Source: Marivirga aurantiaca
GTDB lineage: Bacteria > Bacteroidota > Bacteroidia > Cytophagales > Cyclobacteriaceae
DNA: 64,000 bases
Direction: 5' to 3'
NCBI RefSeq assembly: GCF_016679925.1
Contig: NZ_JAEQBW010000003.1
Coordinates: 124,001-188,000, forward strand
The notes under the pieces were generated by a model. The model searched no databases. It was not told the DNA's origin and saw only the letters and a list, made by a program, of their open reading frames with translations. Positions 10,387 to 51,898 of this stretch are shown in pieces. Within the stretch, counting starts at the first letter, position 1; every line of letters starts with the position of its first letter. Position numbers and translations under genes: made by a program.

Positions 10387-10532
10387 TTTTTTGTCTTGCC
10401 TGTGCTACAACAGCGGGAATTTTTCCTATTACTCAAGACAATCAATTTAAATATTTAATTCTTTACCATTTAATTTGAAAGAGAAATTAAAATTGGCACG
10501 AGATCTCTCCCCCTTTCCTTCAAAGGGGGACT

Positions 10533-10621
10533 CAATGCTATTAAGTTAAGACAAATTTCCTTCTCTCTTTGGAGAAGGATAAAGGTTGAGGTTTAAATTA
10601 AAGCTTAACTTAATAGCATTG
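10533..10621. mobile_element. MITE-like element, copy 1
   Basis: 89 bp bounded by perfect 18-bp terminal inverted repeats, CAATGCTATTAAGTTAAG at the left and its reverse complement at the right. The match extends two more bases on each side (CT/AG). The core holds CCTTCTCTCTTTGGAGAAGG and an AAAGGTTGAGG tail. There is no room for a transposase, so it would need one supplied in trans. It sits inside another intergenic repeat, which indicates insertion into an existing repeat. Confidence 0.65.
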
Positions 10622-10889
10622 AGGAAATTTCAACCAAAGGCTAATATCTTTTTAATCAGGCCTTAGCAGTCTTTGAGCTGAACTTCAAAAGAAATAACTT
10701 GAAACTTATGTGTTTGTCTGAAGCCTCAGTTTTTTTGACTCATCCCGATCCCGAGTACTCGGGACCACCCTTCTCTTCACAAAAGAGAAGGGAATATTAG
10801 GAGTAATCAATTTCAAATAATCTTTGTACTTGTTTTGAGGGTTACATAGATTCTCACGAGATTTCTCCCCTTTCCTTCAAAGGAGGACT

Positions 10890-10978
10890 CAATGCTATTA
10901 AGTTAAGACAAATTTCCTTCTCTCTTCGGAGAAGGATAAAGGTTGAGGTTTAAAGTAAAACTTAACTTAATAGCATTG
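10890..10978. mobile_element. MITE-like element, copy 2
   Basis: 89 bp with the same perfect 18-bp terminal inverted repeats as copy 1 and a core differing at only a few positions. The flanks are also alike on the left, so the two either inserted at equivalent places in two copies of a host repeat or were duplicated together with it. Downstream it continues as GAAAGGGGGATTAAGGGGG, the probable second half of the interrupted host repeat. Confidence 0.65.
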
Positions 10979-11097: not shown

Positions 11098-11556
11098 ATG
11101 GAAAATGTAAAAATTGAACCCTTTCAGGTCATTGGAATTGCGGTAAGAACCACTAATGAGAATGAGCAGGCAGCAAAAGATATTGCTCAATTGTGGGACA
11201 GGTTTATGAGTGAAAATATTTTGGATGCTATTCCAAATAAAATTGATAATACTGTATATTCCTTATATACAGATTATGAGGGAGACCATACGCAGCCTTA
11301 CACAGCCATGCTGGCTTGCCGGGTAAGTCAGTTGGATATTATTCCCGATGGAATGGTAGGAAAGTCGTTTAGCGGAGGTAATTATGTTAAAATAACAGCT
11401 AAGGGTGATCTCACAAAAGGGTTGATAGTGAATGAATGGTCTAAAATATTTGAGCTAAATTTAGAAAGAGTGTATACGGCAGACTTTGAAGCTTTTGGTG
11501 AAAAGGCCCGGAATCCGAAAGATGCTGAAATTGACTTTTTTATAGCAGTTAAGTAA
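11098..11556 (+). CDS. GyrI-like / effector-binding-domain protein
   Basis: 152 residues with the fold pattern of the GyrI-like small-molecule-binding domain (also AraC effector-binding or Cass2-like): N-terminal EPFQVIGIAVRT, central YSLYTDYEGDHTQPYTAMLACRV, and C-terminal YTADFEAFGEKARNPKDAEIDFFIAVK. There is no DNA-binding domain, so it is a stand-alone ligand-binding protein. Family members bind hydrophobic or cationic compounds; the ligand here is unknown. It has a good -7 box and is followed within ten bases by a DUF1801 gene, so the two probably share a transcript. Confidence 0.8.
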   Translation: MENVKIEPFQVIGIAVRTTNENEQAAKDIAQLWDRFMSENILDAIPNKIDNTVYSLYTDYEGDHTQPYTAMLACRVSQLDIIPDGMVGKSFSGGNYVKITAKGDLTKGLIVNEWSKIFELNLERVYTADFEAFGEKARNPKDAEIDFFIAVK

Positions 11557-11932: not shown

Positions 11933-11985
11933 TAAACAACCACAGTCTCGGTTTTTAATTTGCGCCAAAAACCCGCTAACACCTC

Positions 11986-12137
11986 ATTTCGGAATTACTA
12001 CCTACTTATAGGTATTTTGCTGTGGCTTTCGATAAATACTTAGGATTTGTTGAGGGAATGGTTTATGTTCAGCACTTTGATTACAAAAGCCGGACGAAAA
12101 CAGTGTGTAAATGTTTACAGTTGTTTATTGTCGGTTA
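11986..12137. repeat. Dispersed intergenic repeat before lone gene
   Basis: The segment ACTACCTACTTATAG-GTATTTTGCTGTGG-CTTTCGAT and a downstream block with TGTAAATGTTTACA and TTGTCGG recur at 16717-16866. The second block also recurs in weaker form near 48222-48262. A 60-codon frame that overlaps the next gene lies entirely in this repeat and is not called. Confidence 0.5.
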
Positions 12138-12201: not shown

Positions 12202-12210
12202 GTTAGCTAT
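12202..12210 (+). other. Cassette-start box GTTAGCTAT
   Basis: Nine bases, 13 before the next gene. They are the exact reverse complement of ATAGCTAAC at 12927-12935, directly after that same gene. This is the arrangement expected of the R' and R'' boxes of one integron cassette. Confidence 0.5.
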
Positions 12211-12222
12211 GATAAAGCAATC

Positions 12223-12930
12223 ATGGTAAGAATATTTTTAATACTTATTTCTTTAATCAGTTTTGAAGGTTACTGCCAAGAGCTCTCACTGAATTACTAT
12301 GTATCTCAAAATGAAAAAGAAGTTGATGGACAGATTCAATTTATTAGATCAAAGTATTCATACATTACTTCTCAGAAGGAAAATTTAGACTTGTACTATA
12401 AATTTTTTATTAAAAACATCTCACGAAATGAATACAGTTCTTATCCTGAAAATAATCCTCAAATCATAGCCCCATTAAAAAGCTTAAAATCAATTTTAAT
12501 CGAATCTTCTGGGCCAGAAGGTTATGAAGAACTTATTTATAAAACAGATACATTATTTCATTATCCTGAAGCACCAACTAAGTTCTATTTTGAAAATGGA
12601 AACCTTAGATTAATTGAATACGAATATTCGTATGATTTTGATTATGAAAAAATAGAATACTACTTCTGGGATGATAAGTTAATCTTTGCATTTGTTGAGT
12701 CATGGCGACAAGCACATCCGAGTATTGGAAATATAAAAACTTTAAAACAGGAGAGATTTTATTTCAGAAATGAATCACCAATAAGAGCAATCATTAAGGA
12801 ATATCAAGGGGAGGATGATGTATCTAAAGGCATATTATCGCAACCACATATTGACCTAAACCTAACTGAAGGATTAAAAATCATTGATAAAGCCAAAGAA
12901 TTGCAGAGAATAGCAAATAATAAAATATAG
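12223..12930 (+). CDS. Secreted protein of unknown function
   Basis: 235 residues starting with a signal peptide (FLILISLISFEGYCQE), so exported. The mature part is rich in tyrosine, charged residues and beta-prone stretches (KFYFENGNLRLIEYEYSYDFDYE, then KIEYYFWDDKLIFAFVESW). No family was recognised. Its stop codon TAG lies inside the AAC-box of the following palindrome, and the gene is bounded by a self-complementary GTT/AAC box pair. It therefore looks like a single-gene cassette. Confidence 0.65.
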   Translation: MVRIFLILISLISFEGYCQELSLNYYVSQNEKEVDGQIQFIRSKYSYITSQKENLDLYYKFFIKNISRNEYSSYPENNPQIIAPLKSLKSILIESSGPEGYEELIYKTDTLFHYPEAPTKFYFENGNLRLIEYEYSYDFDYEKIEYYFWDDKLIFAFVESWRQAHPSIGNIKTLKQERFYFRNESPIRAIIKEYQGEDDVSKGILSQPHIDLNLTEGLKIIDKAKELQRIANNKI

Positions 12931-13055
12931 CTAACACTACATGTAGCTATGGCTGGCGAAGTGGTTAAAGAAAATTCAGTACATTTAAATAACATTGGTG
13001 CGAGCAGAGAGGAAAGTACTTCGAAAACCGCCAATAAAGATACTTAACGTTGTAG
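12931..13055. repeat. attC-like imperfect palindrome A
   Basis: Left arm CTAACACTACATGTAGCTAT then GGCTGGCG pairs imperfectly with the right arm CGCCAATAAAGATACTTAAC-GTTGTAG. An inner pair GTGGTT/AACCGCC adds to the fold. The right end has GTT followed within 50 bases by the next gene, and the left end has AAC directly after the previous gene: the polarity of integron attC sites. The sequence class recurs at 20720, 51761 and (shorter) 13618. Confidence 0.5.
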
Positions 13056-13094
13056 GACATTTATGCAGAACTTAATAACAAAACTAATTAGACT

Positions 13095-13607
13095 TTGGAA
13101 AACATTTTAAGTTGGCTTAATAGTTTCATAAGAGAAAACTCATTGACTTCAGTTCTTTTAGTCTCGTTAGTCCTAAATATTCTTTATGACTTACTAAAAA
13201 AGCTCTTTTTTTCCGGATTAAAATATAGTATCACAAAAACGAAACGATGGTCTTTGAGAAATATAGAATTTTTAATCAACCATCATAAAGATGAATTGAA
13301 ATCTCTGAAAAAGATTTCGGAAAATGACAAGGGAGAACTTTTAAAGTTAATTGAAGACACGTTTAATTATTTCTTCTTCGGATTAATATTTGCAGTCTCA
13401 CTTTTGTTTATTGACAAAGTAAGTAACGACTTATTCTTTTATGGTTTCCTTGGAGCTTCTACCACTCTGATTATAAAAATAACCCGGAATTTAATATACA
13501 ATTATAGACTGATTAGAAAATCGAAAAAGATAGAATATCACGAAATGAAGATCAAAAAGAGGATTAAAACTCTGAAAGAAATAATTAAGAAATCTAAAAC
13601 TGAATAA
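13095..13607 (+). CDS. Small membrane protein, function unknown
   Basis: 170 residues from TTG; no in-frame ATG gives a longer product. Hydrophobic segments at about residues 15-35 (SVLLVSLVLNILYDLL), 93-110 (YFFFGLIFAVSLLFI) and 112-132 (FYGFLGASTTLIIKI) separate a lysine-rich charged linker and a strongly basic helical tail (KKIEYHEMKIKKRIKTLKE). No family was recognised. It lies between palindromes A and B and is flanked by GTTGTA and TACAAC boxes, as expected of a cassette gene. Confidence 0.6.
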   Translation: MENILSWLNSFIRENSLTSVLLVSLVLNILYDLLKKLFFSGLKYSITKTKRWSLRNIEFLINHHKDELKSLKKISENDKGELLKLIEDTFNYFFFGLIFAVSLLFIDKVSNDLFFYGFLGASTTLIIKITRNLIYNYRLIRKSKKIEYHEMKIKKRIKTLKEIIKKSKTE

Positions 13608-13617
13608 GAAACGCTTT

Positions 13618-13750
13618 ACAACAAAGCCTATAGCAAATGCGGGCTGAATGCTTAAAAATGAAGATATTGCAACTGAATAAATTTACGTAAGGCGAACAAG
13701 AAAGCGGCTTCGAAATCCTGCACTTGCCATAGCCAGGGCCGTTGTGTGTA
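13618..13750. repeat. attC-like imperfect palindrome B
   Basis: Left arm ACAACAAAGCCTATAGCAAA-TGCGGG pairs with right arm CCTGCACTTGCCATAGCCAG-GGCCGTTGTGTG. The right edge carries GTTGTGTGTA, an exact reverse complement of TACACACAAC found after the next gene at 14798-14807. Confidence 0.55.
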
Positions 13751-13772
13751 AGTTGAACCAAAATCAACATTT

Positions 13773-14795
13773 ATGAAAAGAACTTTTTATTTTCTTATTC
13801 TAGTGTTAGTTCTCTCAAAAACTGCCTATGGGCAACATGAGAGCGTCACTAATAATTGGGAAACCGAAAGCATCTATGACAGTAGTCTTGGCGAAATTAA
13901 ATACCACATTTACAAAAATAAAATTAGTGACCATAAGCCTTTAATTGTCTATCTAGAAGGTTCCAGGAATTTCCCCTTGTATTGGCTAAACCCAAATGGG
14001 AGATATTCTAGTAGCATCACTTTGAATGTTAATTCAATGAGTAATGATTATCATATTGTTCTTATTAGCAAACCTAATACGCCTCTTGTTGACAGTATCA
14101 GAATAGCGCCATCAGGCAGAAAGCAATATCCTATGAAGGAAGGATATCGTGAGAAGTACAGTCTGGATTGGAGAGCAAATTCCGCTGACAAGGTCATGAA
14201 CGATGCATTAAAAAAACTGAATGTAGATAGCTCTACAGTCATTGTTTGGGGACATTCAGAAGGTTCGCAAGTGGCACCGGCCGTAGCAGTAAAGAACAAG
14301 AACGTTACCCATGTCATCTCTATGATGGGCAATTCACTCAATCATTTGTATGACTTTATCCTTATGGAAAGGCTGTCCGCCTTAAATGGTGAAAAATCAA
14401 ATGAAGAAGCACAGTCGAACATCGATTCTTTATATGTCGAATTTGAAAAAATATACAATGATCCAAAATCCACAACAAAAGAATGGTTTGGAGAAACTTA
14501 TTACAAGTGGAGTAGTTTCTCCTTGACCTCCCCACTTGAAAATATGCTGAAGCTTGACCTCCCGATTCTTTACATCGCTGGAGGAAATGACCACCATAGT
14601 ATTTTGAATATGGACTACGCAAAACTCGAGTTCTTGAGGAAAGGAAAAGACAATTTGACCTATAAAGTATTTCCAAACTGCGACCATTTTTTTATGGAGA
14701 CCAAGACCGATGAATCAGGTAAAAAAGAATGGATTGACCACTTGGATGAAGTCAATGACTTTGCTTTAGAATGGGTAACTAAAATTAATAAATAA
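13773..14795 (+). CDS. Secreted alpha/beta hydrolase
   Basis: 340 residues with a signal peptide (FLILVLVLSKTAYGQ). The mature part has the alpha/beta-hydrolase layout: strand PLIVYLEGSRNFPLYW with an oxyanion region, nucleophile elbow VWGHSEGSQVAP (Ser in GHSEG), an acid candidate in YIAGGNDHHS, and a C-terminal histidine in FPNCDHFFME. It is therefore probably an active serine esterase or peptidase acting outside the cytoplasm; substrate unknown. It is bounded by complementary GTTGTGTGTA (13741) and TACACACAAC (14798) boxes, the best example of a cassette-like gene here. Confidence 0.75.
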   Translation: MKRTFYFLILVLVLSKTAYGQHESVTNNWETESIYDSSLGEIKYHIYKNKISDHKPLIVYLEGSRNFPLYWLNPNGRYSSSITLNVNSMSNDYHIVLISKPNTPLVDSIRIAPSGRKQYPMKEGYREKYSLDWRANSADKVMNDALKKLNVDSSTVIVWGHSEGSQVAPAVAVKNKNVTHVISMMGNSLNHLYDFILMERLSALNGEKSNEEAQSNIDSLYVEFEKIYNDPKSTTKEWFGETYYKWSSFSLTSPLENMLKLDLPILYIAGGNDHHSILNMDYAKLEFLRKGKDNLTYKVFPNCDHFFMETKTDESGKKEWIDHLDEVNDFALEWVTKINK

Positions 14796-14797
14796 CC

Positions 14798-14850
14798 TAC
14801 ACACAACAATGTATACCTCAATAGGGGCTTTGTGGGTTAGGTTATTTCAG
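14798..14850. repeat. Left half of an attC-like site
   Basis: TACACACAACAATGTATACC then TCAATAGGGGC directly after the hydrolase gene resembles the left arms of the other palindromes. No matching right arm is visible before the DUF4157 gene at 14947, so the site seems truncated. Confidence 0.4.
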
Positions 14851-14946
14851 TGGTTCTAGCTATTTTGCTACGGGGACAGTGATTCACTTCGATGAGCCTA
14901 CGCACAGCGTTCTATGCAATATTCCAAAACCTGAAAAGAAAAGATT

Positions 14947-16212
14947 ATGAATACTCACGCTGACAAAATACAAGAGAATAAAAGCCAACCGGTATCTGCT
15001 TCGGTTTCTCAGATGCAGGGCAGTAGTGAGTCTACCTTTCAGTTTGTGGACAATCGACCTGAAGCAATTGCGCAAAGGAAACTGCAGGAGGTAGCGGATA
15101 ATAGTCCTCAAACCATGCAGTTGAGAGCTTTACAGGCAATGGCGGATCATTATTCTGCACAACAACAGCATCCCATTCAGAAAAAAGAAAACAACACTGG
15201 TTTACCTGATAATTTAAAGTCTGGTGTCGAAAGTCTTTCGGGCTACTCCATGGATGATGTCAAAGTGCATTACAATTCTGATAAGCCTGCTCAGTTGAAT
15301 GCTCATGCTTATGCCAAAGGAACGGATATTCATTTAGCTTCTGGGCAAGAAAAACACTTGCCTCATGAAGCCTGGCATGTTGTGCAGCAAAAGCAGGGAC
15401 GTGTTAAGCCGACCACTCAGCTCAAAGGAAAGGTAAATGTTAATGATGATGCTGGGTTGGAGAAAGAAGCTGATGTGATGGGGGCGAAAGCACTATCTTT
15501 TAACGGGGCAACAACTAATTCTGAAGAATCGAAATCAATTTCTTCAAACAATGTATCCCTTGTTCAAATGGTCAAATCAATTTCTGAAGTAGTGCCTCCT
15601 GGAAGAATATCCACTCCCCAACAATCCCTGACTCGATACAATTCATACTTGCAATCGGAGGTAAATGGTATTGCAAATCAAGGTTTACTACAAGGTTGGC
15701 AAATTGCTGCTCAACTTCAAATACTAACTAATGCCACTCAGATGATAAACGCCATGAATCCACCCACTTCTGAGCGGATCAAGGAGGTACATAACTTATT
15801 TGACCAAGTTAAACAATTCATAGTGGCGCAGCAAACACCACCGATAATCAATTTAGCCATTACCTATGGTGCTGCGCACGGTGATTTACATTTCATTGCC
15901 AACCCAACTGCCAATAAATCAGCATGGACTATTCCCAAAGTAAATGCGCTGGCACTGATGAATACAGAAATAACAAATCGTATGCAAGACATTGTACGAG
16001 CAGCTAGAGCATCTCAAAATGGACAAGTGGCACTATTACTCATTGCGGATTCGAACGGCCCCATAGGCAATTCCATTAGGAACAACAGAATTCAACGCTT
16101 TCAAATCCAATTGCAAGCAGACCTGAACAGCGGAGGAATCAGCTATCACGGTTTTCCTGATGATCAAGCACTCCACACGGGTCTTGGAGCCACTAGAAAT
16201 TCATTGGTATGA
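14947..16212 (+). CDS. DUF4157 eCIS-associated effector, payload 1
   Basis: 421 residues. Residues 1-80 form a low-complexity, Gln/Asn/Ser-rich leader with FQFVDNRPEAIAQRKLQE at ~31-48. Residues ~85-183 are the DUF4157 (eCIS core) domain with the metalloprotease-like HEAWH at 140-144. Residues 184-421 are a distinct, mainly helical C-terminal part with ITYGAAHGDLHF and ALLLIADSNGPIGNS motifs that I do not recognise. DUF4157 proteins are established cargo or toxin candidates of extracellular contractile injection systems. There is no signal peptide, in keeping with loading into an injection particle. It lacks the KKEEEELVQKKENK insert of the other three copies. Confidence 0.8.
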   Translation: MNTHADKIQENKSQPVSASVSQMQGSSESTFQFVDNRPEAIAQRKLQEVADNSPQTMQLRALQAMADHYSAQQQHPIQKKENNTGLPDNLKSGVESLSGYSMDDVKVHYNSDKPAQLNAHAYAKGTDIHLASGQEKHLPHEAWHVVQQKQGRVKPTTQLKGKVNVNDDAGLEKEADVMGAKALSFNGATTNSEESKSISSNNVSLVQMVKSISEVVPPGRISTPQQSLTRYNSYLQSEVNGIANQGLLQGWQIAAQLQILTNATQMINAMNPPTSERIKEVHNLFDQVKQFIVAQQTPPIINLAITYGAAHGDLHFIANPTANKSAWTIPKVNALALMNTEITNRMQDIVRAARASQNGQVALLLIADSNGPIGNSIRNNRIQRFQIQLQADLNSGGISYHGFPDDQALHTGLGATRNSLV

Positions 16213-16965
16213 GCAGATGTAAATTTGAAATATAACACTAACTATTCAAGTGATTAAAAAAAGCCTATGCCAACAGATAAGCGACATTAAAACGAGCGTT
16301 TGTTCAAACCTTTTAACTCCCATATAAAAAACAACCCCTCACCTATTAAAAAAAAAGTATAAATTTTTTATCCTCAAATTACCTTTCCCAGGCATCTTGC
16401 TTTGGGAAAGGTAAAAACCACGGCATCTTTTTCCTAAAACCACAGCATCTTTTTTTCAGAAACAAAATAGTGCCTTCCTACAGCGGAAATGGCATATTTG
16501 AGCCTTCCGAAAAGTCACTTATATAGCTCACATGAGTTCAATAGGATAGCATGGAAAGCGGGCAATATTTTAACGTAAAACAGAAGGGTTTATTGAAGAT
16601 GCTTTCCGGAATGAGACAGGTTTTATCCTTAGAAAATACAATATTACTATTTGTGAGAAACAACTCAGAGGCAGCCTTGAGCTGCTTCAACTTTCCAAAT
16701 TTGATGTTGGCTTATTTCAGAACCACTACCTACTTATAAGTATTTTGCTGTGGCTTTCGATCAAAAGTTAGGATATATTATGGAAAGGAAGTATGTTGAA
16801 GGGCTTAAATAAGCTTGATGACAGAGGAAATGCTTGTAAGCATTTACAAGCGTGTGTTGTCGGGTCTGGAAAATAGAAAGGAAGTATGTGCTCCAGGAGG
16901 TGCACTTAGTCACACGTTCGACAGAGTTTATGAGACTAGTAAGTAAAAATAAATTATAATAACAT
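16213..16965. repeat. Gene-free gap: hairpin and dispersed repeat
   Basis: 753 bases without a convincing gene. They contain a perfect 12-bp stem TTACCTTTCCCA/TGGGAAAGGTAA (16379-16414) downstream of the effector gene but with no T run. Next come two near-identical units CCACGGCATCTTTTT and CCACAGCATCTTTTT, and then from 16717 to 16866 the repeat shared with 11986-12137. A 62-codon frame at 16551 shows no coding signature. Confidence 0.5.
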
Positions 16966-20698: not shown

Positions 20699-20719
20699 TA
20701 GGAGATAAGTAATAGCACA

Positions 20720-20848
20720 CTAACATTGCATATAGCTTATGGCGAATAAAGCGGTAAGTGAAAATTCAGTACTTTTAAGTAAGTTTGGTGTGGGCAGAGA
20801 GGAAAGCGCTTTGAAATACCGCACTGCGCATAGCCGAAACCGTTTTAA
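20720..20848. repeat. attC-like imperfect palindrome C
   Basis: Left arm CTAACATTGCATATAGCTTA-TGGCG and inner GCGGTAAG. The middle, AATTCAGTACTTTTAAGTAA then GTTTGGTG, is close to that of sites A and D; the right arm is ATACCGCACTGCGCATAGCC-GAAACCGTTTTAA. The right-edge GTT is 13 bases before the next ATG. Sequence conservation with sites A (12931) and D (51761) is obvious along the whole length. Confidence 0.55.
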
Positions 20849-20860
20849 CATTCAGAAATA

Positions 20861-33022: not shown

Positions 33023-34678
33023 ATGAATACCCACGCTAACAAAAAGCAACAGAATAAAAATCAATCAGTAGTAAATACCATTGCTCAAAAAAAGGGTGGA
33101 GGTGAGCCTGCTTTTCAATTTGTAGACAAAAGACCTGAAGCTGTGGCACAAAGAAAGCTTCAACAAATAGCCAATAACAGTCCACAAGCCAGGCAAACTG
33201 CGCAACTTTTGGGTAAGGTTGGTTCCGAAGATATTCAGCTGAAGAAGGAAGAAGAGGAGCTTGTACAAAAGAAGGAAAACAAAACCGGATTACCCGATCA
33301 GTTAAAAACAGGAATTGAGAACCTTTCAGATTATTCTATGGATGATGTGAAAGTCCACCGCAATTCCGATAAACCGGCTCAGCTAAATGCCCATGCTTAC
33401 GCACAGGGAACAGATATCCATCTGGCTTCCGGCCAGGAGAAACACTTGCCCCACGAAGCCTGGCATGTAGTGCAGCAAAAACAAGGAAGGGTAAAGCCGA
33501 CCACTCAGCTCAAAGGAAAGGTAAATATTAATGATGATGAGGGTTTGGAGAAAGAAGCAGATGTGATGGGGGCGAAGGCATTGCAATTTAAACAAGTTGA
33601 AAAAGATCATTTTAAATCATCTATACCATCTTCAGTTGCCCAATTATATAAGGCAATTGATTTGGACGAGTCTCAAAACTGGGAGGATGTAAGGGAAGCA
33701 TTTAAAGCTATAAAACCTCGGTTTATTGAAGAAGGAGATCTTGGGCAAGAACATTTCGTAATGAAATATGTCGAAGGACCTCCTTTATCTAGTAAGCTAA
33801 ATGTTTCTGAAGCAGGAAACCTGGCAATTAATGCTGATGGCGGTTCCCAGCATACTGTGTTTTTTCTTGCAGCAGGTACTCTTGATCAATCCAATACTGA
33901 TTTGGAGGCTGCAAATGGAGACTTTAGACTGACTCCGACTGGAATAGTCGTTGTAGTCAATAATCACCCTCAACAAGGAAGCAGAAGTAGATTACTGCAA
34001 GTAGAGGCGACACCAGTTGAAGATAAAGGAGTCCATTGGGCTAGAGATTTGGAGACTAGATGTGACCTGTACTATAAGAATATTACTAAAGCCCATGCTG
34101 GTTTTGTGGAAATATTCAGTACGTCATTAGCTGAAAATGACCAAGGAGAAATTAGTGCAGAGCGCCATCAACAGCTCGATCAAGCTTTAGCCAACATGAG
34201 GCTAACGGCCGGGGACGCTTTTGAAATTAAAGCCTTTGGTGCTAAAAGCCCAGGATTTGGATGGAATGAGCATTATGCTGGAATAGTTGCTGTTGATGGT
34301 GCTGATCAAGTAACTCTTGAAAATTATAATAGGGATGGTGAGTTCGGTGAACAAGCTGTCGTGGTGGCAACTCAAAAACTTGGGAAAAACGGACAACAAA
34401 TAGATGATGAATTAAGTCAGTTAAGAAAGGAGTTAAAGGAAAAATGGTTCTGGGAAAAAGCAGAAAAAATAAGGCTCAATGGTGCAATAGCAGATTTAGT
34501 GGTTCTTCAACAACAATGGCTCACAATAATGAGGGATAGTAGAAGAAGCCAGGTAGACACAAAGCATTTCAAGATGTACGGACCTGCTTCAAAAGGACAA
34601 TCCTTTTTAGATATGTGGCGGGGAGAAATGGAAATGCAACAAAGTAAATTAAGTGTTGCTAATGCAGAACGAGAATGA
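33023..34678 (+). CDS. DUF4157 eCIS-associated effector, payload 3
   Basis: 551 residues. Leader and DUF4157 domain are nearly identical to the other copies (VDKRPEAVAQRKLQQ ~34-48; HEAWH 144-148; end of shared part ~187). The payload (~190-551) contains WARDLETRCDLYYKN (Cys347), GFGWNEHYAGIVAVDG then ADQVTLENYNR (His417, Asn434/436) and HFKMYGPASKGQSFLDMW near 517-536. Cys, then His, then Asn/Asp, with a strand carrying LENY, looks like a papain-like or deamidase-type catalytic layout. That is inference. No signal peptide, in keeping with eCIS loading. Confidence 0.8.
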   Translation: MNTHANKKQQNKNQSVVNTIAQKKGGGEPAFQFVDKRPEAVAQRKLQQIANNSPQARQTAQLLGKVGSEDIQLKKEEEELVQKKENKTGLPDQLKTGIENLSDYSMDDVKVHRNSDKPAQLNAHAYAQGTDIHLASGQEKHLPHEAWHVVQQKQGRVKPTTQLKGKVNINDDEGLEKEADVMGAKALQFKQVEKDHFKSSIPSSVAQLYKAIDLDESQNWEDVREAFKAIKPRFIEEGDLGQEHFVMKYVEGPPLSSKLNVSEAGNLAINADGGSQHTVFFLAAGTLDQSNTDLEAANGDFRLTPTGIVVVVNNHPQQGSRSRLLQVEATPVEDKGVHWARDLETRCDLYYKNITKAHAGFVEIFSTSLAENDQGEISAERHQQLDQALANMRLTAGDAFEIKAFGAKSPGFGWNEHYAGIVAVDGADQVTLENYNRDGEFGEQAVVVATQKLGKNGQQIDDELSQLRKELKEKWFWEKAEKIRLNGAIADLVVLQQQWLTIMRDSRRSQVDTKHFKMYGPASKGQSFLDMWRGEMEMQQSKLSVANAERE

Positions 34679-42406: not shown

Positions 42407-42446
42407 AAAATACTAGTGCCAATCAACCAAACATAAATACCAAAGA

Positions 42447-44171
42447 ATGAATACCCACGCTGACAAATCACAGGAGAATAAAAGCCAATCAGTAGCAAAT
42501 AGCATTGCTCAAAAAAATAGTGTCAGCGAACCTGCTTTTCAATTTGAGGACAATAGACCCGAGGCTGTGGCTCAAAAAAAGCTTCGAGAAATTGTAGATA
42601 AAAGTCCGCAGGCTGTTAAAATTGCGCAGCTAAAGGCTATGGCCGAAATCCAAAGTGTTCAGCTGAAAAAAGAAGAGGAGGAACTTGTCCAAAAAAAGGA
42701 AAACAAAACTGGCTTGCCCGATCAGTTAAAAACAGGCATTGAAAACCTATCAGGCTATTCCATGGACGATGTAAAAGTCCACCGGAATTCCGATAAACCG
42801 GCCCAGCTAAATGCCCACGCCTATGCTCAGGGAACAGATATCCACTTGGCATCCGGGCAGGAAAAACATTTACCCCATGAAGCCTGGCATGTAGTGCAAC
42901 AAAAGCAAGGTCGTGTAAAGCCGACTACTCAGCTCAAAGGAAAGGTGAATATTAATGATGATGCAGGCTTGGAAAAAGAAGCGGATGTGATGGGAGAAAG
43001 AGCAATACAGTTAGCATCAGCAAGCTCTTTCAATAAGACCCCTGAAAAGCCTTTAGCTTTTCAAACCAAATCGAAAGGAGCAATTCAGCTCAAGAGGACG
43101 GAAGTGGGAGGGGCACTTTATACGGAAAAAGCTTTTGAGAATCCATTAGAATTAGAAGAAACAACAACTGCAGCACCTCGTGTGGTAATGTCATTTGGAA
43201 ACAATGCTCAACAACTGAGTGAATTGATAATGGAAAATAAAGAGTTGGCAGAAACAAAACTAAATCCTAAATATGTAATCGGTGTAAATGTTGGTCCAAC
43301 AGATATAAAAACTTCCAAAAAGGGACCACAGGCACCTACCATGGCTGATGCCGAAGGTGAAGCCGAAAAAGTATTCGCAACTGGAAAGGATATGGGATTG
43401 GTTGTAATTCCATTTACCTGGTCGGCAGGAAACGCGAGAGATAGCATGTATGAATTTCCCTATTTTGAGGCGAGAAGTTTGCTCATGAAAGCAGCATTGC
43501 CCATAGGAGACTTAACCGAAGGAACAATTTATGCCATGACAGATCGGGATGCTAGAGATTCAACAGGAATTGATCCTGAGCATATTGCAGCGGAACGAAT
43601 TGACAATCAACTAAATAGCAAAACCCCAACCTTGGTTGCGGGCCCTTATGATTGGAGGGAAGATGACACGGATGATGCTTTACTTCAGTCCATTATTCTA
43701 GTTGTGAATTCTGCTGAAGAGGAATTCAGGAATTGGAAAATACAAAATGGACTTTCTTCCTATTTTCCAGAACCTAATTTGTTTTTTAATCGGGCCGGAG
43801 TGGAAACAGCGATTGAAAATTTCGATGGTGAAAAGCTTAGTGGCCAACAAGCTAAAGAGTCAGAGGTAATACGAAAACAAGGTATAAATGAAAAATACAA
43901 CAAGCATGCAAGGGTTACCAAGCCAGCCAAAAAGCCAATTGGTAAAAAAATGTACTTAGATGGGGTATACACTTTAATTGGTAGTTTTAAAAAACATAAA
44001 GATGTTACAGCCGAAGATGTACAGGAAATGTTTGATAATATTATTCAGTCGGAGTTGTCAGCTTCCAATGTAAGGGAAATGACAAATCAACAAGAAGATG
44101 CTGAAGTAAAAGCACTAGAAATCATAGAAAATGCAGCATCCATCATCAACAAAATATTAAAGATAAAATAA
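42447..44171 (+). CDS. DUF4157 eCIS-associated effector, payload 4
   Basis: 574 residues. The shared part runs to ~187 (FEDNRPEAVAQKKLRE ~33-48, KKEEEELVQKKENK, HEAWH 144-148). The payload (~200-574) carries PKYVIGVNVGPTDIKTS, VVIPFTWSAGNARDSMYEFP, YFEARSLLMKAALP and IYAMTDRDARDSTGIDPEHI. The acidic TDRDARD on a predicted strand end, after FPYFEAR, could be the DxD metal/nucleotide-sugar site of a glycosyltransferase-like fold, but I cannot prove it. Helical C-terminal tail. No signal peptide; an eCIS cargo candidate. Confidence 0.8.
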   Translation: MNTHADKSQENKSQSVANSIAQKNSVSEPAFQFEDNRPEAVAQKKLREIVDKSPQAVKIAQLKAMAEIQSVQLKKEEEELVQKKENKTGLPDQLKTGIENLSGYSMDDVKVHRNSDKPAQLNAHAYAQGTDIHLASGQEKHLPHEAWHVVQQKQGRVKPTTQLKGKVNINDDAGLEKEADVMGERAIQLASASSFNKTPEKPLAFQTKSKGAIQLKRTEVGGALYTEKAFENPLELEETTTAAPRVVMSFGNNAQQLSELIMENKELAETKLNPKYVIGVNVGPTDIKTSKKGPQAPTMADAEGEAEKVFATGKDMGLVVIPFTWSAGNARDSMYEFPYFEARSLLMKAALPIGDLTEGTIYAMTDRDARDSTGIDPEHIAAERIDNQLNSKTPTLVAGPYDWREDDTDDALLQSIILVVNSAEEEFRNWKIQNGLSSYFPEPNLFFNRAGVETAIENFDGEKLSGQQAKESEVIRKQGINEKYNKHARVTKPAKKPIGKKMYLDGVYTLIGSFKKHKDVTAEDVQEMFDNIIQSELSASNVREMTNQQEDAEVKALEIIENAASIINKILKIK

Positions 44172-48344: not shown

Positions 48345-50741
48345 ATGATTAAGAATATAGAACAAATTGAGAAAATAAGTTGCTTTGACTCGTTCGTATG
48401 GACGGATATTCCTGATTTTACTAAATACAACTTCTTATTTGGCTTTAATGGTTCTGGAAAGACTTCATTATCTAATATTTTCAACTTAATTACCACAAAA
48501 ACAAACTTTTCTGAAGACAAGAAAAAAGAGTTGTTTCAAGATTTAAAAAATAGTGATGCAGGGAAGATTAGAGTAAATACTGGAAATAATCAAAAGTTAA
48601 CATATCCATCGACTGATAACCAAAATAATAGAAATGTATTTGTTTTTAACTCAAACTTCATCTCTGACCATGTTTACGATGGTACAAAAGGAAATTTTAA
48701 AAAGTTTAATGTATCTTCTACAGAGCTTAATGACCCTGACATAAAGAAAATTACAGATAAAATTGAGGCAAAGGAAGAAACTATAAAAGAACTGAATAAA
48801 AAGACAAAAAAGGCTGAAGATGAGTTAGCTCAGGTAAAAAAGGATTATAACTCAGATTTTAGGAAAAATTTTGCGAATAAAACATTATCCGTAGACAAAA
48901 CAATACCAACAGTAGACCAGATACCTAATGATTCAATAGAACAATTGAAACAGAAATTAACTCTAAAAATAAAGGAGCATAATTTATCAAAAAATCAAAA
49001 AAGCCTTGAAGAAGATGTCCAAAGGTTTTCTCAATTAAAATTTTCGGAGATTAAAATTCTTCAGGTAGATATCAATAAAGTACTTCAAGATTCCGTATCT
49101 AAAATAGCAACAGACTCATTGACTCAAAAAATTTCTGATTTTCAAGAAATTGTTGAAGAAGATGATATTAGAAAAGTAGAACCTTGGTATAAATTCGGTA
49201 ATGAATTATTCAAAAAGATAAGTCAAAATCAAAACAAAAATTGTCCTCTTTGTGATTCAAACATAAGTGAATCTTTTAATGATTTGGTTAAATCTTTTTC
49301 TGCATATTTTGATAAGGAGTATGAGGTTTTCATCGATAAAATTGATGAACAGATTACATTAATTGAGGCGCAAATCAATACAATTAAAGAAACCAATTCA
49401 AATTATGAAAAGCTTTTTAAGCTATACATCAAATACACAGATTTCATCAATCATAGTCCAAGCGAATTTTCTACAGGAGAACTTGAAACATTACTGAATG
49501 AAATAAAAGAGGAATTGATTAATAAAAAAAGTAATTCCAATAAGCAGCAGAAACTTGATTTTAGTGAATTGGATGATATTTTAAAGGTGCATAACCAAGT
49601 TATGGAAGAGTTGAGTGCTTACGTTGAATCATTAAAAGAAAATCTCTTATCAAGGATCAAATCTCCCAATACTATAGAATCAAGCATTAGGAATATTTAT
49701 AAATCAATTGTATACAAGAACCTTGACACTAAATTAAATGGAGTTGAAAAATATCATTCAAATTGTGGTTTAAAGAAAAAAACAGTTAAGGAAATTGAAG
49801 TATTACAAGAAGAAAAAGTTCAAAGACTTAAGGGGTTAAAAATAGAAGCTAAAAAAGTCGGAGAATTTTTAAAAAGGCTTGGAATTAATCATTTTACAAT
49901 AGATTTAAATGAAGAAAGTGAAGAAGATAATATACTTGTAAAATATAAATCTCAATCTCAGATTAAATCACGATTAAGGAATACATTAAGTGAGGGAGAA
50001 AAAACAGCGTTAGCTTTTTCTTATTTTTTGAGCAAAGTTACAATTGAAACTAAGAATCCCAGCCAAACGATTATTGTTATTGACGACCCGATTTCAAGCC
50101 TTGATGATAACAGAATTTATAATACAGCATCAATAATTTATGATACATTTTGTGATTATAAGCAATTATTCATTCTAAGCCATAATTTCTTCTTTCTGAA
50201 ATACATTTTTCCATTATTTAGAAAAGAAAAAAGTTGCTATCTCATTTCTAATGGCAATATTGATAGTCTACCTAAGAGTTTGCAAAACTTCCAAACTCCT
50301 TATTACTATATGATTGAAAGCATAAGTTCTTTTATTGATGCTAATGATAAAAACTATGATGAAGCAAGGAAGTTTTTACCAAATTATATTCGCAGAGTTT
50401 TAGAAACATTTTTCAGTTTCAAGTATGCTAAATTAACCAGAGCACGAAACGGAAGCCAATCTCCAGGTTTGGACGATTTTATTAAAGATTACATTGACTT
50501 TAGCTCATTACCAATAATGTCTGTGGATTCTATAAACAATGAAAATATAAAGGATAAACTACAAATGATAAGCAATGTGTGTGATAATTTTTCACACGGA
50601 AATATGCAGCAACTTGAAAATACAAACTTTATAACCAATCAGTCATTAGACTCTATTTCAAAAGACTGCTTATCAATTATAGAATTTTTTGATGGAATAC
50701 ATTTTAAGATGATAAACGAATTAAATAATACGGAGGAATAA
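48345..50741 (+). CDS. RloC-like AAA ATPase, possible anticodon nuclease
   Basis: 798 residues. SMC/ABC-type head: Walker A GFNGSGKT (33-40), signature LSEGEKTALAFSYFLS and Walker B IIVIDDPISSLD in the C-terminal half. Between them is a long coiled coil with a zinc-hook-like CPLC at 300-303. After the head is Arg683-x3-Glu687 (YIRRVLETFFSF) and His751 (NFSHGN), the residue types used by PrrC/RloC anticodon nucleases. RloC proteins cut tRNA during phage infection or DNA damage. The ATPase class is certain; nuclease activity is inferred from R-E-H and needs testing. It is a lone gene in a cassette-like position. Confidence 0.72.
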   Translation: MIKNIEQIEKISCFDSFVWTDIPDFTKYNFLFGFNGSGKTSLSNIFNLITTKTNFSEDKKKELFQDLKNSDAGKIRVNTGNNQKLTYPSTDNQNNRNVFVFNSNFISDHVYDGTKGNFKKFNVSSTELNDPDIKKITDKIEAKEETIKELNKKTKKAEDELAQVKKDYNSDFRKNFANKTLSVDKTIPTVDQIPNDSIEQLKQKLTLKIKEHNLSKNQKSLEEDVQRFSQLKFSEIKILQVDINKVLQDSVSKIATDSLTQKISDFQEIVEEDDIRKVEPWYKFGNELFKKISQNQNKNCPLCDSNISESFNDLVKSFSAYFDKEYEVFIDKIDEQITLIEAQINTIKETNSNYEKLFKLYIKYTDFINHSPSEFSTGELETLLNEIKEELINKKSNSNKQQKLDFSELDDILKVHNQVMEELSAYVESLKENLLSRIKSPNTIESSIRNIYKSIVYKNLDTKLNGVEKYHSNCGLKKKTVKEIEVLQEEKVQRLKGLKIEAKKVGEFLKRLGINHFTIDLNEESEEDNILVKYKSQSQIKSRLRNTLSEGEKTALAFSYFLSKVTIETKNPSQTIIVIDDPISSLDDNRIYNTASIIYDTFCDYKQLFILSHNFFFLKYIFPLFRKEKSCYLISNGNIDSLPKSLQNFQTPYYYMIESISSFIDANDKNYDEARKFLPNYIRRVLETFFSFKYAKLTRARNGSQSPGLDDFIKDYIDFSSLPIMSVDSINNENIKDKLQMISNVCDNFSHGNMQQLENTNFITNQSLDSISKDCLSIIEFFDGIHFKMINELNNTEE

Positions 50742-50746
50742 GTACT

Positions 50747-50880
50747 GGCTACAACATTTTGTATAAGTAATGGCAGGGAAAGTGCTTATATTTAAGGTTT
50801 GTAGCCCGCTCAAACTGCATAGGGGTTTAACTGGAAACTACCACGCAATCTGCCACTACTCATACAATTTACCGTTAGGC
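50747..50880. repeat. attC-like imperfect palindrome F (best fold)
   Basis: Left arm GGCTACAACATTTTGTATAA-GTAATGGCAG; right arm CTGCCACTACTCATACAATT-TACCGTTAGGC. The inner 18 positions pair with two mismatches. The right end GTTAGGC fits the integron R' consensus GTTRRRY exactly, and the next gene starts 15 bases later. Confidence 0.6.
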
Positions 50881-50894
50881 ATAATAATACAACC

Positions 50895-51776
50895 ATGAAA
50901 TACAGAGGATTATTTGTAATAATTTCAGCAATAGCATTAACAACCATCGCTTATTTAAATACGACTGAATACGCAATTCTAGGCGTACTTTTATTTTTTC
51001 TTCTCATTCTTGGAACATCTATTTATGGAATGTTAAAGCCAAAATCAGAAGATAACTATCACAATAGACGGTGGCTTGTTTTTCTTTCGGCAGTAGGTGT
51101 ATTTTTGTTAGTTTTTAGCAGAATAGTGTTAATGAACTATTGGACAGGTTTTTGGGAATTGTCTAATTATCTGTTTTACACATCAGTAGTTCTATTTCTG
51201 ACATTTGTTGTTGTTTTAACAATCTCAACCTATAAAAACAAAGGACTTAGTTTTTACAATTCCTCTGACGCAATATTATTATTAACTCCCTTAATATTGT
51301 TTTTTCTCTTAGAACTGTTTCATTTTAAAAATTCTGTTTCTAAGGAAAGTATAGACAGAGTCGGTAATTTAAGGAGGTATGCAGACATTTATTTAGGAAA
51401 TATAATACAAGAAAATAGAGACTCACTATTTATCAAAACTTACAAGCATATAGAGGAAATAGAAAATAAACTTATTGAACAAAGTGGAGGATTAAATACT
51501 GAAGGTCATTTAGTCAATGGAAACGATTACAGACGTCCAAATTCAATAGTCATCCAATCTGGCCGGTTGAGAGACTTGGAAATGACATTCAACAAGCTAT
51601 GGATTTCGATAGACAACAAAGAAGCTAAAGACAAGATAAATAGGATCTATCAATATATTTTAACTGAAAATATCAGAGACAATAGTGTGACAGAAATGCT
51701 TTACCGCCTATCTTTATTTAGATTACAATTAAAAAATATAGAATTAGAAATACACGCTACCCAACACTGCATATAG
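50895..51776 (+). CDS. Five-helix membrane protein in cassette position
   Basis: 293 residues. About five hydrophobic helices in the first 155 residues (FVIISAIALTTIAYL, AILGVLLFFLLILGTSIYGM, LVFLSAVGVFLLVFS, FYTSVVLFLTFVVVLTIS, LLLTPLILFFLLELF) are followed by a ~130-residue helical cytoplasmic part. No family was recognised. It is enclosed by palindromes F and D, and its last codons lie inside the left arm of D. R' GTTAGGC before it and R'' ACCCAAC after it both fit the integron box consensus. This is the cleanest single-gene cassette in the window. Confidence 0.65.
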   Translation: MKYRGLFVIISAIALTTIAYLNTTEYAILGVLLFFLLILGTSIYGMLKPKSEDNYHNRRWLVFLSAVGVFLLVFSRIVLMNYWTGFWELSNYLFYTSVVLFLTFVVVLTISTYKNKGLSFYNSSDAILLLTPLILFFLLELFHFKNSVSKESIDRVGNLRRYADIYLGNIIQENRDSLFIKTYKHIEEIENKLIEQSGGLNTEGHLVNGNDYRRPNSIVIQSGRLRDLEMTFNKLWISIDNKEAKDKINRIYQYILTENIRDNSVTEMLYRLSLFRLQLKNIELEIHATQHCI

Positions 51777-51890
51777 CTTATGGCGGCTAAAGCAGTAAAA
51801 GCAAATTTTGTACATTTAAGTAAGTTTGGTGCAGTCAGACGAGAAAGCATTTCCAAAACTGCTACCAAGCCACATGCTTAATGTTATGTA
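51761..51890. repeat. attC-like imperfect palindrome D
   Basis: CCAACACTGCATATAGCTTA-TGGCGG on the left; interior GTACATTTAAGTAAGTTTGG as in sites A and C; right arm CCACATGCTTAATGTTATGT. It overlaps the last codons of the preceding gene. The box ACCCAAC (51759-51765) fits the RYYYAAC consensus. Confidence 0.55.
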
Positions 51891-51898
51891 TTCCTCCA

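What the first reader, a model, noticed from the sequence alone, without database searches (positions are those of the whole stretch)
12202..14850. Integron-like gene cassettes without an integrase
Lone plus-strand genes are separated by imperfect palindromes with attC polarity (AAC at the left edge just after a gene, GTT at the right edge just before the next). The box before a gene matches the box after the same gene, not the other edge of the same palindrome: GTTAGCTAT/ATAGCTAAC around 12223-12930 is 9 of 9, GTTGTGTGTA/TACACACAAC around 13773-14795 is exact over 10 (11 of 12 with the next bases), and GTTGTA/TACAAC around 13095-13607 is 6 of 6. Within palindrome A the two edges share only GTT. 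This self-matching is expected if each unit once circularised at its own attC. Integron cassettes are established biology; their presence in this phylum, with such long sites and no integrase in view, would be unusual.
Basis: partly seen in the sequence, partly recalled or inferred. Interest (0 to 1): 0.82.

Follow-up and report, generated by a model that had tools for sequence, protein, structure and literature searches.

The report
Hidden integron-like cassette arrays in Bacteroidota
The three genes look like stranded members of a gene-capturing system, much like the integrons that spread antibiotic resistance, which recurs in many bacteria of this group, normally has an unusual recombinase of its own, and which this genome appears to have lost the ability to run.

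Summary
Palindromes A and B belong to one family of about 130-bp attC-like sites, modelled without window sequence (R1). The window holds five R1 sites; 101 of 148 sampled genomes of its family hold at least one. The stem covaries strongly (571 double changes; shuffled mean 163), with two fixed A.C oppositions that become T.G on the bottom strand. Each cassette's end boxes match each other, not the other edge of the same palindrome: 4.73 of 6 bases in 99 pairs, shuffled 2.16.

Outside the window the rest appears. A tyrosine recombinase related to IntI and XerA, lacking the IntI-specific insertion, heads arrays. A putative attI lies 44-173 bp after its stop codon (20 of 28 heads; 30 of 756 controls). 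Three pairs of congeners are identical up to GTT, then carry unrelated first cassettes. Plasmid pPP2 of Persicobacter psychrovividus carries a 99-kb, 75-site array with the recombinase at its head. Elsewhere the window's genome keeps an attI-like junction, a first cassette and an array, but only about the last 50 codons of the recombinase.

Not shown: recombination itself, and mobility of the window's own three genes.

The parts
12203..13049 (+). cassette 1 (from TT of the GTT at 12202 to the G of the GTT at 13049), lone gene 12223-12930, 235 aa, no Pfam match
   Evidence: box pair GTTAGCTAT 12202 / ATAGCTAAC 12927; Pfam 0 families; gene found in 1 of 148 family genomes, its own
12920..13064 (+). 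attC-like site A (AAC 12933, GTT 13049), diverged member
   Evidence: R1 25.8 bits, E 9.5e-7
13050..13741 (+). cassette 2, lone gene 13095-13607, 170 aa, no Pfam match; box match weak
   Evidence: GTTGTA 13049 / TACAAC 13617, 5 of 9 bases after GTT, tied by two other GTTs
13607..13756 (+). attC-like site B (AAC 13620, GTT 13741), the window site closest to the family consensus
   Evidence: R1 134.4 bits, E 7e-45; 86.5% identical over 89% to a site on plasmid NZ_AP025294.1
13742..14909 (+). cassette 3, lone gene 13773-14795, 340 aa, alpha/beta hydrolase
   Evidence: box pair GTTGTGTGTA 13741 / TACACACAAC 14798, 8 of 9; Pfam DLH 5.9e-6
14796..14921 (+). palindrome C, probable attC-like site of another subfamily (AAC 14805; GTT 14909 read by eye)
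   Evidence: left box matches cassette 3's start; no R1 match; fold not better than shuffles
20709..20857 (+). further attC-like site
   Evidence: R1 38.3 bits, E 3.7e-11
50740..50889 (+). further attC-like site
   Evidence: R1 43.1 bits, E 8.1e-13; not among the rows of the genome-wide search
51750..51898 (+). further attC-like site
   Evidence: R1 36.7 bits, E 1.4e-10

Best explanation
The window genes are cassettes of an integron-like site-specific recombination system of Bacteroidota. Each cassette is usually one gene plus a trailing attC-like site of about 130 bp. A tyrosine recombinase (most often 358-409 aa: N-terminal part, SAM-like domain, catalytic domain; no IntI insertion), encoded at the head of the array and in the same direction, would bind the folded bottom strand of the site and cut at G|TT in the right-hand box. 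It would join circular cassettes to an attI that lies 44-173 bp after its own stop codon. In the circle the cassette's start box pairs with its end box, which explains why boxes match across a cassette and not across a site. Shown by comparison: site family, covariation, self-matching ends, head position, attI-like junctions, precise breakpoints, duplicated cassettes. Inferred: circular intermediate, bottom-strand use, the exact cut, catalysis by this recombinase. In the window's genome the recombinase is seen only as a C-terminal remnant, so its arrays are orphaned and probably frozen.
For: Model R1 from 65 sites outside the window finds 5 sites in the window, 16 listed in the genome at E<1e-4, and sites in 101 of 148 family genomes. 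Covariation: 95.8% of 1893 cells paired, 571 double changes against 163 shuffled, slid versions 27-46% paired. Box self-matching. 31 recombinase heads: 96 sites downstream on the same strand, 0 upstream. attI box match in 20 of 28 heads against 30 of 756 controls. Congener breakpoints: exact runs of 71, 52 and 36 nt up to GTT, then 33, 24 and 32 of 100. pPP2: 75 sites from 304176 to 403541, all minus, recombinase matches at 404100-404591 and 6-326 across the record start; duplicated cassettes end at GTT. Own remnant at C30:448734-448901, 50 residues at 80% to the congener's recombinase, with a GTT 44 bp after its stop whose box matches 8 of 9 a left box at C30:448129.
Against: No recombination was observed. 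Whole-site folding of A, B and C is not better than shuffles. Relatives of the hydrolase in 4 other genomes lie in loci (1.5 kb flanks) without R1 sites, so mobility of the window's own genes is not shown. The box match of cassette 2 is weak, and the best upstream box for the sites at 20709, 50740 and 51750 is only 5, 5 and 4 of 9. 8 of 28 heads gave no attI match of 6 or more of 7. Layout exceptions in capped listings: site upstream of the recombinase (G044:C154, G159:C1), opposite strand (G098:C50), divergent (G155:C517). The pair counts use an alignment fitted to the model. 12 of 141 stems are more stable on the top strand.
Confidence: 0.87

Rival explanations
1. Canonical integron remnant (CALIN): the sites are ordinary attC sites once served by a classical IntI that was lost.
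For: Same logic of cassette, attC polarity, G|TT and self-matching R boxes; classical cassettes also self-pair over 9-11 nt (PMC2727003, passages seen). Same-direction layout is known in Treponema (PMC3607928, passages seen).
Against: No IntI over the cut-off in the own genome or in 14 site-bearing genomes (0 of 14). The recombinases scored below the TIGR02249 cut-off of 265 wherever a whole-protein score was printed: 203-212 for four from site-bearing genomes, of which L167 shares a contig with an array, and 204.9 for the congener's array head. They lack the IntI insertion. Instead of bulged extrahelical bases the consensus stem has A.C oppositions.
Confidence: 0.08
2. The repeats are RNA elements (terminators, riboswitch-like or REP-like hairpins) spread by ordinary homologous recombination, with no site-specific recombinase.
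For: Conserved hairpin with covariation; sites trail genes, as terminators do.
Against: No Rfam family at gathering score except a tRNA in the window, and none in four array loci. G-U pairs are only 24 of 1893 cells (counted from the table); I recall RNA helices as richer in them. An RNA element does not explain boxes matching across a cassette, attI-like junctions beside a recombinase or exact duplicates ending at GTT.
Confidence: 0.03
3. A transposon-like or MITE-like repeat family that inserts after genes; arrays arise by repeated insertion.
For: Dispersed repeats of fixed length in many genomes; annotated transposase genes lie within the pPP2 array.
Against: All R1 sites of the pPP2 array point one way (75 of 75); the gene travels with its trailing repeat; boxes outside the repeat match across the gene.
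Confidence: 0.02

Closest known systems
Integrons (IntI / attI / attC cassettes), superintegron type of Vibrio cholerae
   Same: Mostly single-gene cassettes in one orientation; attC-like palindromic sites with R box, spacer, L stem and long terminal part; joints at GTT; self-matching R boxes; tyrosine recombinase with an adjacent attI-like junction; array of 75 sites on one replicon.
   Different: Recombinase lacks the IntI insertion and has an extra N-terminal part; attI lies 3' of the recombinase gene; A.C (bottom T.G) oppositions instead of bulged extrahelical bases; terminal part of about 75 nt conserved within subfamilies.
Treponema chromosomal integrons
   Different: Those are described with intI; phylum differs. 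Their sites were not compared here.
Integron-like subgroup of simple tyrosine recombinases; XerA/IntI-like NF040815
   Same: Four recombinases of site-bearing genomes score 207-220 bits to NF040815 (cut-off 220, one just over), the congener's array head 216.6. PMC8138268 (passages seen) says the integron insertion is not fully conserved in its integron-like subgroup, yet essential for integron function.
   Different: The passages seen do not link insertion-less members to cassette arrays.
CALIN (attC clusters lacking an integrase)
   Same: The window's arrays have no intact recombinase in view.
   Different: The remnant recombinase and the stem differ from classical integrons.

Membership tests
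Integron (classical, IntI-based) | IntI with its specific insertion, over the curated score | tested here: not met
   Own genome best 81 of 265 bits; 0 of 14 site-bearing genomes over cut-off; model positions about 181-235 unmatched, and IntI4 residues 178-241 answered by about 21 residues
Integron (classical, IntI-based) | attC sites: palindromic, AAC...GTT polarity, R box - spacer - L stem - terminal part | tested here: met
   113 of 128 distinct copies have both AAC and GTT near the expected places although neither was in the search pattern
Integron (classical, IntI-based) | Extrahelical bulged bases in the L stem | tested here: not met
   Consensus arms are of equal length with two fixed A.C oppositions (132 and 99 of 141 sites); subfamilies were not checked one by one
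Integron (classical, IntI-based) | attI next to the integrase gene | tested here: met
   Junction boxes in 20 of 28 heads against 30 of 756 controls; position is 3' of the gene, as in Treponema
Integron (classical, IntI-based) | Cassette gain, loss or shuffling with breakpoints at G|TT | tested here: met
   Congener pairs and duplicated pPP2 cassettes; not for the window's own three genes
Integron (classical, IntI-based) | Recombination of folded single-strand attC by the integrase | not testable with these tools
   Only stem energies: bottom strand more stable in 128 of 141 and 65 of 65 sites
Integron (classical, IntI-based) | Promoter Pc that expresses cassettes | not tested
   -
CALIN (sites without integrase) | Cluster of attC sites with no integrase nearby | tested here: met
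   A and B lie 0.5 kb apart; no recombinase in the window by tblastn with two related recombinases; only a C-terminal remnant elsewhere

The most novel reading that the evidence does not exclude
A separate lineage of integron, widespread in Bacteroidota and missed because surveys look for the IntI insertion: an insertion-less recombinase reads the site strand through fixed T.G wobbles in the bottom-strand stem instead of bulged bases, with attI 3' of its gene, and builds arrays of superintegron size, also on plasmids.
Probability: 0.6. Interest if true: 0.92.

Novelty: new variant of a known kind. Interest (0 to 1): 0.85.

Why it matters
Few integrons are reported in Bacteroidota: IntegronFinder 2.0 (PMC9024848, passages seen) names a complete one in Salinibacter ruber and says that before only In0 had been found; PMC8618304 (passage seen) lists the phylum among carriers. 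A gene-capture platform in many sampled genomes of one family, also on a 405-kb plasmid, would be a large unseen route of gene exchange in a major phylum. It also asks whether the IntI insertion, called essential for integron function (PMC8138268, passage seen), is one of two solutions. Strand choice by T.G wobbles instead of bulges is directly testable.

Tried and rejected
Whole-site folding energies gave no support; covariation was used instead. A blind search of all GTT against all AAC boxes after the recombinases was too noisy (15 of 31 score 7 or more of 8, controls 184 of 870); restricting to R1 sites gave the clear result. The idea that an integrase sits beside the window's left flank gene in the congener G116 was dropped: that 292-aa recombinase is followed by a 383-aa ORF and looks like an IS-type element (family name from memory). 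The idea that an SSB gene accompanies the recombinase was dropped: it lies beside the remnant, and none was found among the upstream ORFs examined at the other heads, several of which had little or no upstream room. Homologues of two window genes were sought in 148 genomes: the hydrolase in 5 including its own, the first ORF only in its own; no R1 site in the four foreign loci. Rfam: only a tRNA in the window, nothing in four array loci. Phage records: no match. Eight paper searches listed no paper on such a system that I recognised.
Full report
WHAT IS THERE. The window is G000:C30:124001-188000 of a 5.01-Mb, 36-contig genome, 99.98% complete. Two of the three box pairs are strong: 7 and 8 of 9 bases after GTT, the best among 63 and 67 candidate GTTs within 4.5 kb. 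The pair of the middle cassette (GTTGTA/TACAAC, 5 of 9) is weak and on its own would be chance. For the sites at 20709, 50740 and 51750 no good start box was found upstream (best 5, 5 and 4 of 9).

THE SITE FAMILY. Palindrome B has a second close copy in the genome (C30:323911). A pattern of its inner arms, leaving out the AAC and GTT edges, hits 8 of 148 genomes of the same family, with 0 for the reversed control pattern in the rows shown, 116 stretches of named genomes (mostly Bacteroidota, some Chlorobiaceae and single others by record title), and one viral contig. One search gave 134 rows with enough flank, 128 of them distinct; 113 of the 128 have both AAC and GTT near the expected places and 14 one of them. 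Outside the edges the sequence varies. The inner part is 98-101 bp long and falls into sequence subfamilies. I chose 65 non-redundant copies, leaving out the two of the own genome, and built model R1. R1 finds B (134 bits), A (25.8 bits, E 9.5e-7) and three more sites on the plus strand in the window (20709, 50740, 51750); the minus-strand hit at B is its own palindrome. In the genome-wide search 16 sites are listed at E<1e-4 (the window's 50740 is not among them), five of them in a minus-strand array at C30:437582-446439. 101 of 148 family genomes have a site at E<=1e-6 (stricter filters, 20 candidates scored per genome).

COVARIATION. On 141 hits in 21 fetched sources the 14 stem pairs are standard in 95.8% of 1893 cells, with 571 double changes (shuffled mean 163) and a covariation score of 0.735 (0.149 shuffled). 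The numbers of pairs with a double change (13) and of further pair types (41) do not exceed the shuffles. Sliding the partners by 1-3 columns drops pairing to 27-46%. The alignment is fitted to the model, which helps the structure somewhat. G-U or U-G pairs are only 24 of the 1893 cells by my count of the table, which fits DNA better than RNA (recalled yardstick). Two positions hardly ever pair: A opposite C in 132 of 141 and in 99 of 141 sites, while their neighbours change freely. On the bottom strand these become T.G. The bottom-strand stem is accordingly more stable in 128 of 141 sites (mean -2.4 kcal/mol; 12 the other way) and in 65 of 65 of A1. Whole-site folding of A, B and C is not better than shuffles.

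SELF-MATCHING ENDS. I left out two hits that are the reverse reading of a site, so 139 sites remain; 133 have AAC and 135 GTT at the expected place. In 99 neighbouring pairs under 2.5 kb apart, the box before a cassette and the box after it agree at 4.73 of 6 positions, with 63 of 99 perfect. For cassettes under 700 bp, 35 of 42 are perfect and 40 of 42 have 5 or more. Shuffled partners give 2.16 (sd 0.12, maximum 2.59 of 2000). The two edges of the same site agree at 2.26 of 6 (n=130), that is, chance. Because pPP2 repeats some cassettes I recounted distinct box pairs: 81 pairs, mean 4.57, 49 perfect, shuffled 2.11; without pPP2, 30 pairs, mean 4.73, 18 perfect, shuffled 2.19. Classical cassettes are also described as self-pairing over 9-11 nt (PMC2727003, passages seen).

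THE RECOMBINASE. No IntI passes the cut-off in the own genome or in 14 genomes reached through site-bearing loci (16 loci given, 15 placed; 0 of 14). Thirteen of those 14, by my reading of the table, hold a recombinase with a best piece of 94-127 bits, matching TIGR02249 in two pieces, roughly positions 2-180 and 236-315. Four examples score 203-212 bits (cut-off 265) and 207-220 to NF040815 (cut-off 220). 25 array-head recombinases all match both families, but their scores were printed for one only: 204.9 and 216.6. The congener's protein aligns to IntI4 (2A3V) in two stretches, with chain residues 178-241 answered by about 21 residues. Pfam gives Phage_int_SAM_4 and Phage_integrase in 4 of 4, and in one a sub-threshold HARP match in the N-terminal part. 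Of 31 recombinase ORFs at heads, 23 are 358-409 aa, the whole range 273-544 (starts not verified). In 148 family genomes profile A2 hits 146 at E<=1e-40, but that includes XerC/D and IS-type recombinases.

HEAD OF ARRAY AND attI. I examined 31 recombinase loci. Twenty-one were chosen because sites were already known near them. Ten more came from the top of the list (G102, G070, G050, G114, G047, G085, G128, G078, G097, G034; G073, G091 and G126, of similar rank, were not fetched, and G085 had a listed site about 10 kb downstream). In all 31 together, 96 R1 sites lie downstream on the same strand, none upstream on the same strand, and one on the other strand, which is a palindrome's reverse reading. 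The fetched upstream stretches were shorter than most downstream ones, so this is not a fair two-sided count. Of the ten, 7 have sites downstream; the other 3 end in 0.2-2.1 kb of contig. In 20 of 28 heads with sites, a GTT 44-173 bp after the recombinase stop matches the left box of the first or second site in at least 6 of 7 bases, against 30 of 756 cross-genome controls; of the ten, 5. The attI candidates often end in ..ATAAGTAAG|TT or ..TATAAACAAG|TT. Three pairs of congeners (L229/L242, L260/L265, L272/L273) are identical for 71, 52 and 36 nt up to GTT and then agree at 33, 24 and 32 of the next 100 bases (the low downstream values printed are an alignment artefact). Identity through GTT cannot tell G|TT from GTT|. 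Exceptions to the layout seen in the capped listings: G044:C154, G159:C1, G098:C50, G155:C517.

pPP2. Contig G049:C3 equals NZ_AP025294.1, plasmid pPP2 of Persicobacter psychrovividus NBRC 101262, by length and by position of the match. It has 75 R1 sites from 304176 to 403541, all minus. The annotated genes I viewed in the array are 79 of 79 on the minus strand, by my count, two of them transposon-type genes: 39 and 40 from 302591 on; most of 344-360 kb was not viewed. Recombinase matches at 404100-404591 and 6-326, minus, run across the start of the circular record, just ahead of the array. Seven groups of cassettes repeated with identical proteins give 11 pairwise comparisons with 100% identical coding sequence. 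Exact identity starts 1-3 bases before the GTT in 9 of 11, runs about 14 bases further into a similar upstream site in one (685), and is cut by an indel 5 nt before the gene in one (682-683). In 11 of 11 it ends at the next GTT or one base beyond.

THE WINDOW'S OWN GENOME. The only trace of the recombinase found is C30:448734-448901 (73.5 bits, profile positions 401-456): 50 residues at 80% identity to the end of the congener's 390-aa protein. 44 bp after its stop (counted) is a GTT (about C30:448683) whose box matches, 8 of 9, a left box at C30:448129. So an attI-like junction and a first cassette remain; that cassette's own site is not an R1 hit, and the five-site array follows. The same-genus genomes G055 and G116 have intact copies. 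No recombinase lies in the window by tblastn. The window's sites are thus orphaned, either cut off from, or once scattered from, such a platform.

LITERATURE. Seen: passages of PMC9024848, PMC8352920, PMC8618304, PMC9668308, PMC2727003, PMC8138268 and PMC3607928; for the rest only search listings. None of these described such a system in Bacteroidota; the library lacks preprints and most subscription journals. IntegronFinder's integrase test uses PF00589 plus a second integrase profile (PMC9668308, passage cut off before the second profile was named), so I infer that these recombinases would be missed.

VERDICT. Works like an integron: well supported by comparison. Is a classical integron: not met, because the IntI-specific insertion and, in the consensus, the bulged bases are absent. 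New variant of a known kind.

Noticed in passing
window 10510-10621 and 10867-10978: 112-nt direct repeats, 96% alike, each with a perfect inverted repeat of 18-20 bp (CTCAATGCTATTAAGTTAAG); MITE-like.
   Followed up: no
window 11098-11556: Gene matches Pfam Cass2, integron-associated effector binding protein (1.3e-23), just upstream of the first cassette; whether it is itself a cassette was not settled.
   Followed up: partly
window 14924-14980, 33023-33056, 42429-42480; L234 402-458 and 11650-11706; L233 11328-11382: A stretch that includes the start of the eCIS_core-domain gene (14947-16212) recurs at 80-93% identity in five other places of the genome: several genes seem to share one N-terminal stretch.
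   Followed up: no
window 11983-12069 and 16711-16797; L234 3151-3350; L179 391-516: Another repeat family, 73-84% alike in the pieces found, not matched by R1; one copy lies just before the first cassette. Possibly a further site subfamily.
   Followed up: partly
L270, L271 (and L283 4642-6682): In G047 and G085 a second recombinase of 279-280 aa follows the array recombinase, near a GTT with a similar next stretch; G085 lists six copies with the same score. In L283 a similar 292-aa recombinase is followed by a 383-aa ORF. Looks like an IS that may insert at attI; the link is inference.
   Followed up: partly
NZ_AP025294.1 360000-404592: Seven of 39 annotated genes viewed here are DUF4279, DUF4272, DUF6678 or suppressor-of-fused domain proteins, which I recall as common among immunity proteins; worth a defence/immunity scan.
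   Followed up: no
L286 1172-1507: An SSB-like gene (named from the sequence, no family search) lies beside the recombinase remnant; not found among the upstream ORFs examined at the other heads.
   Followed up: yes
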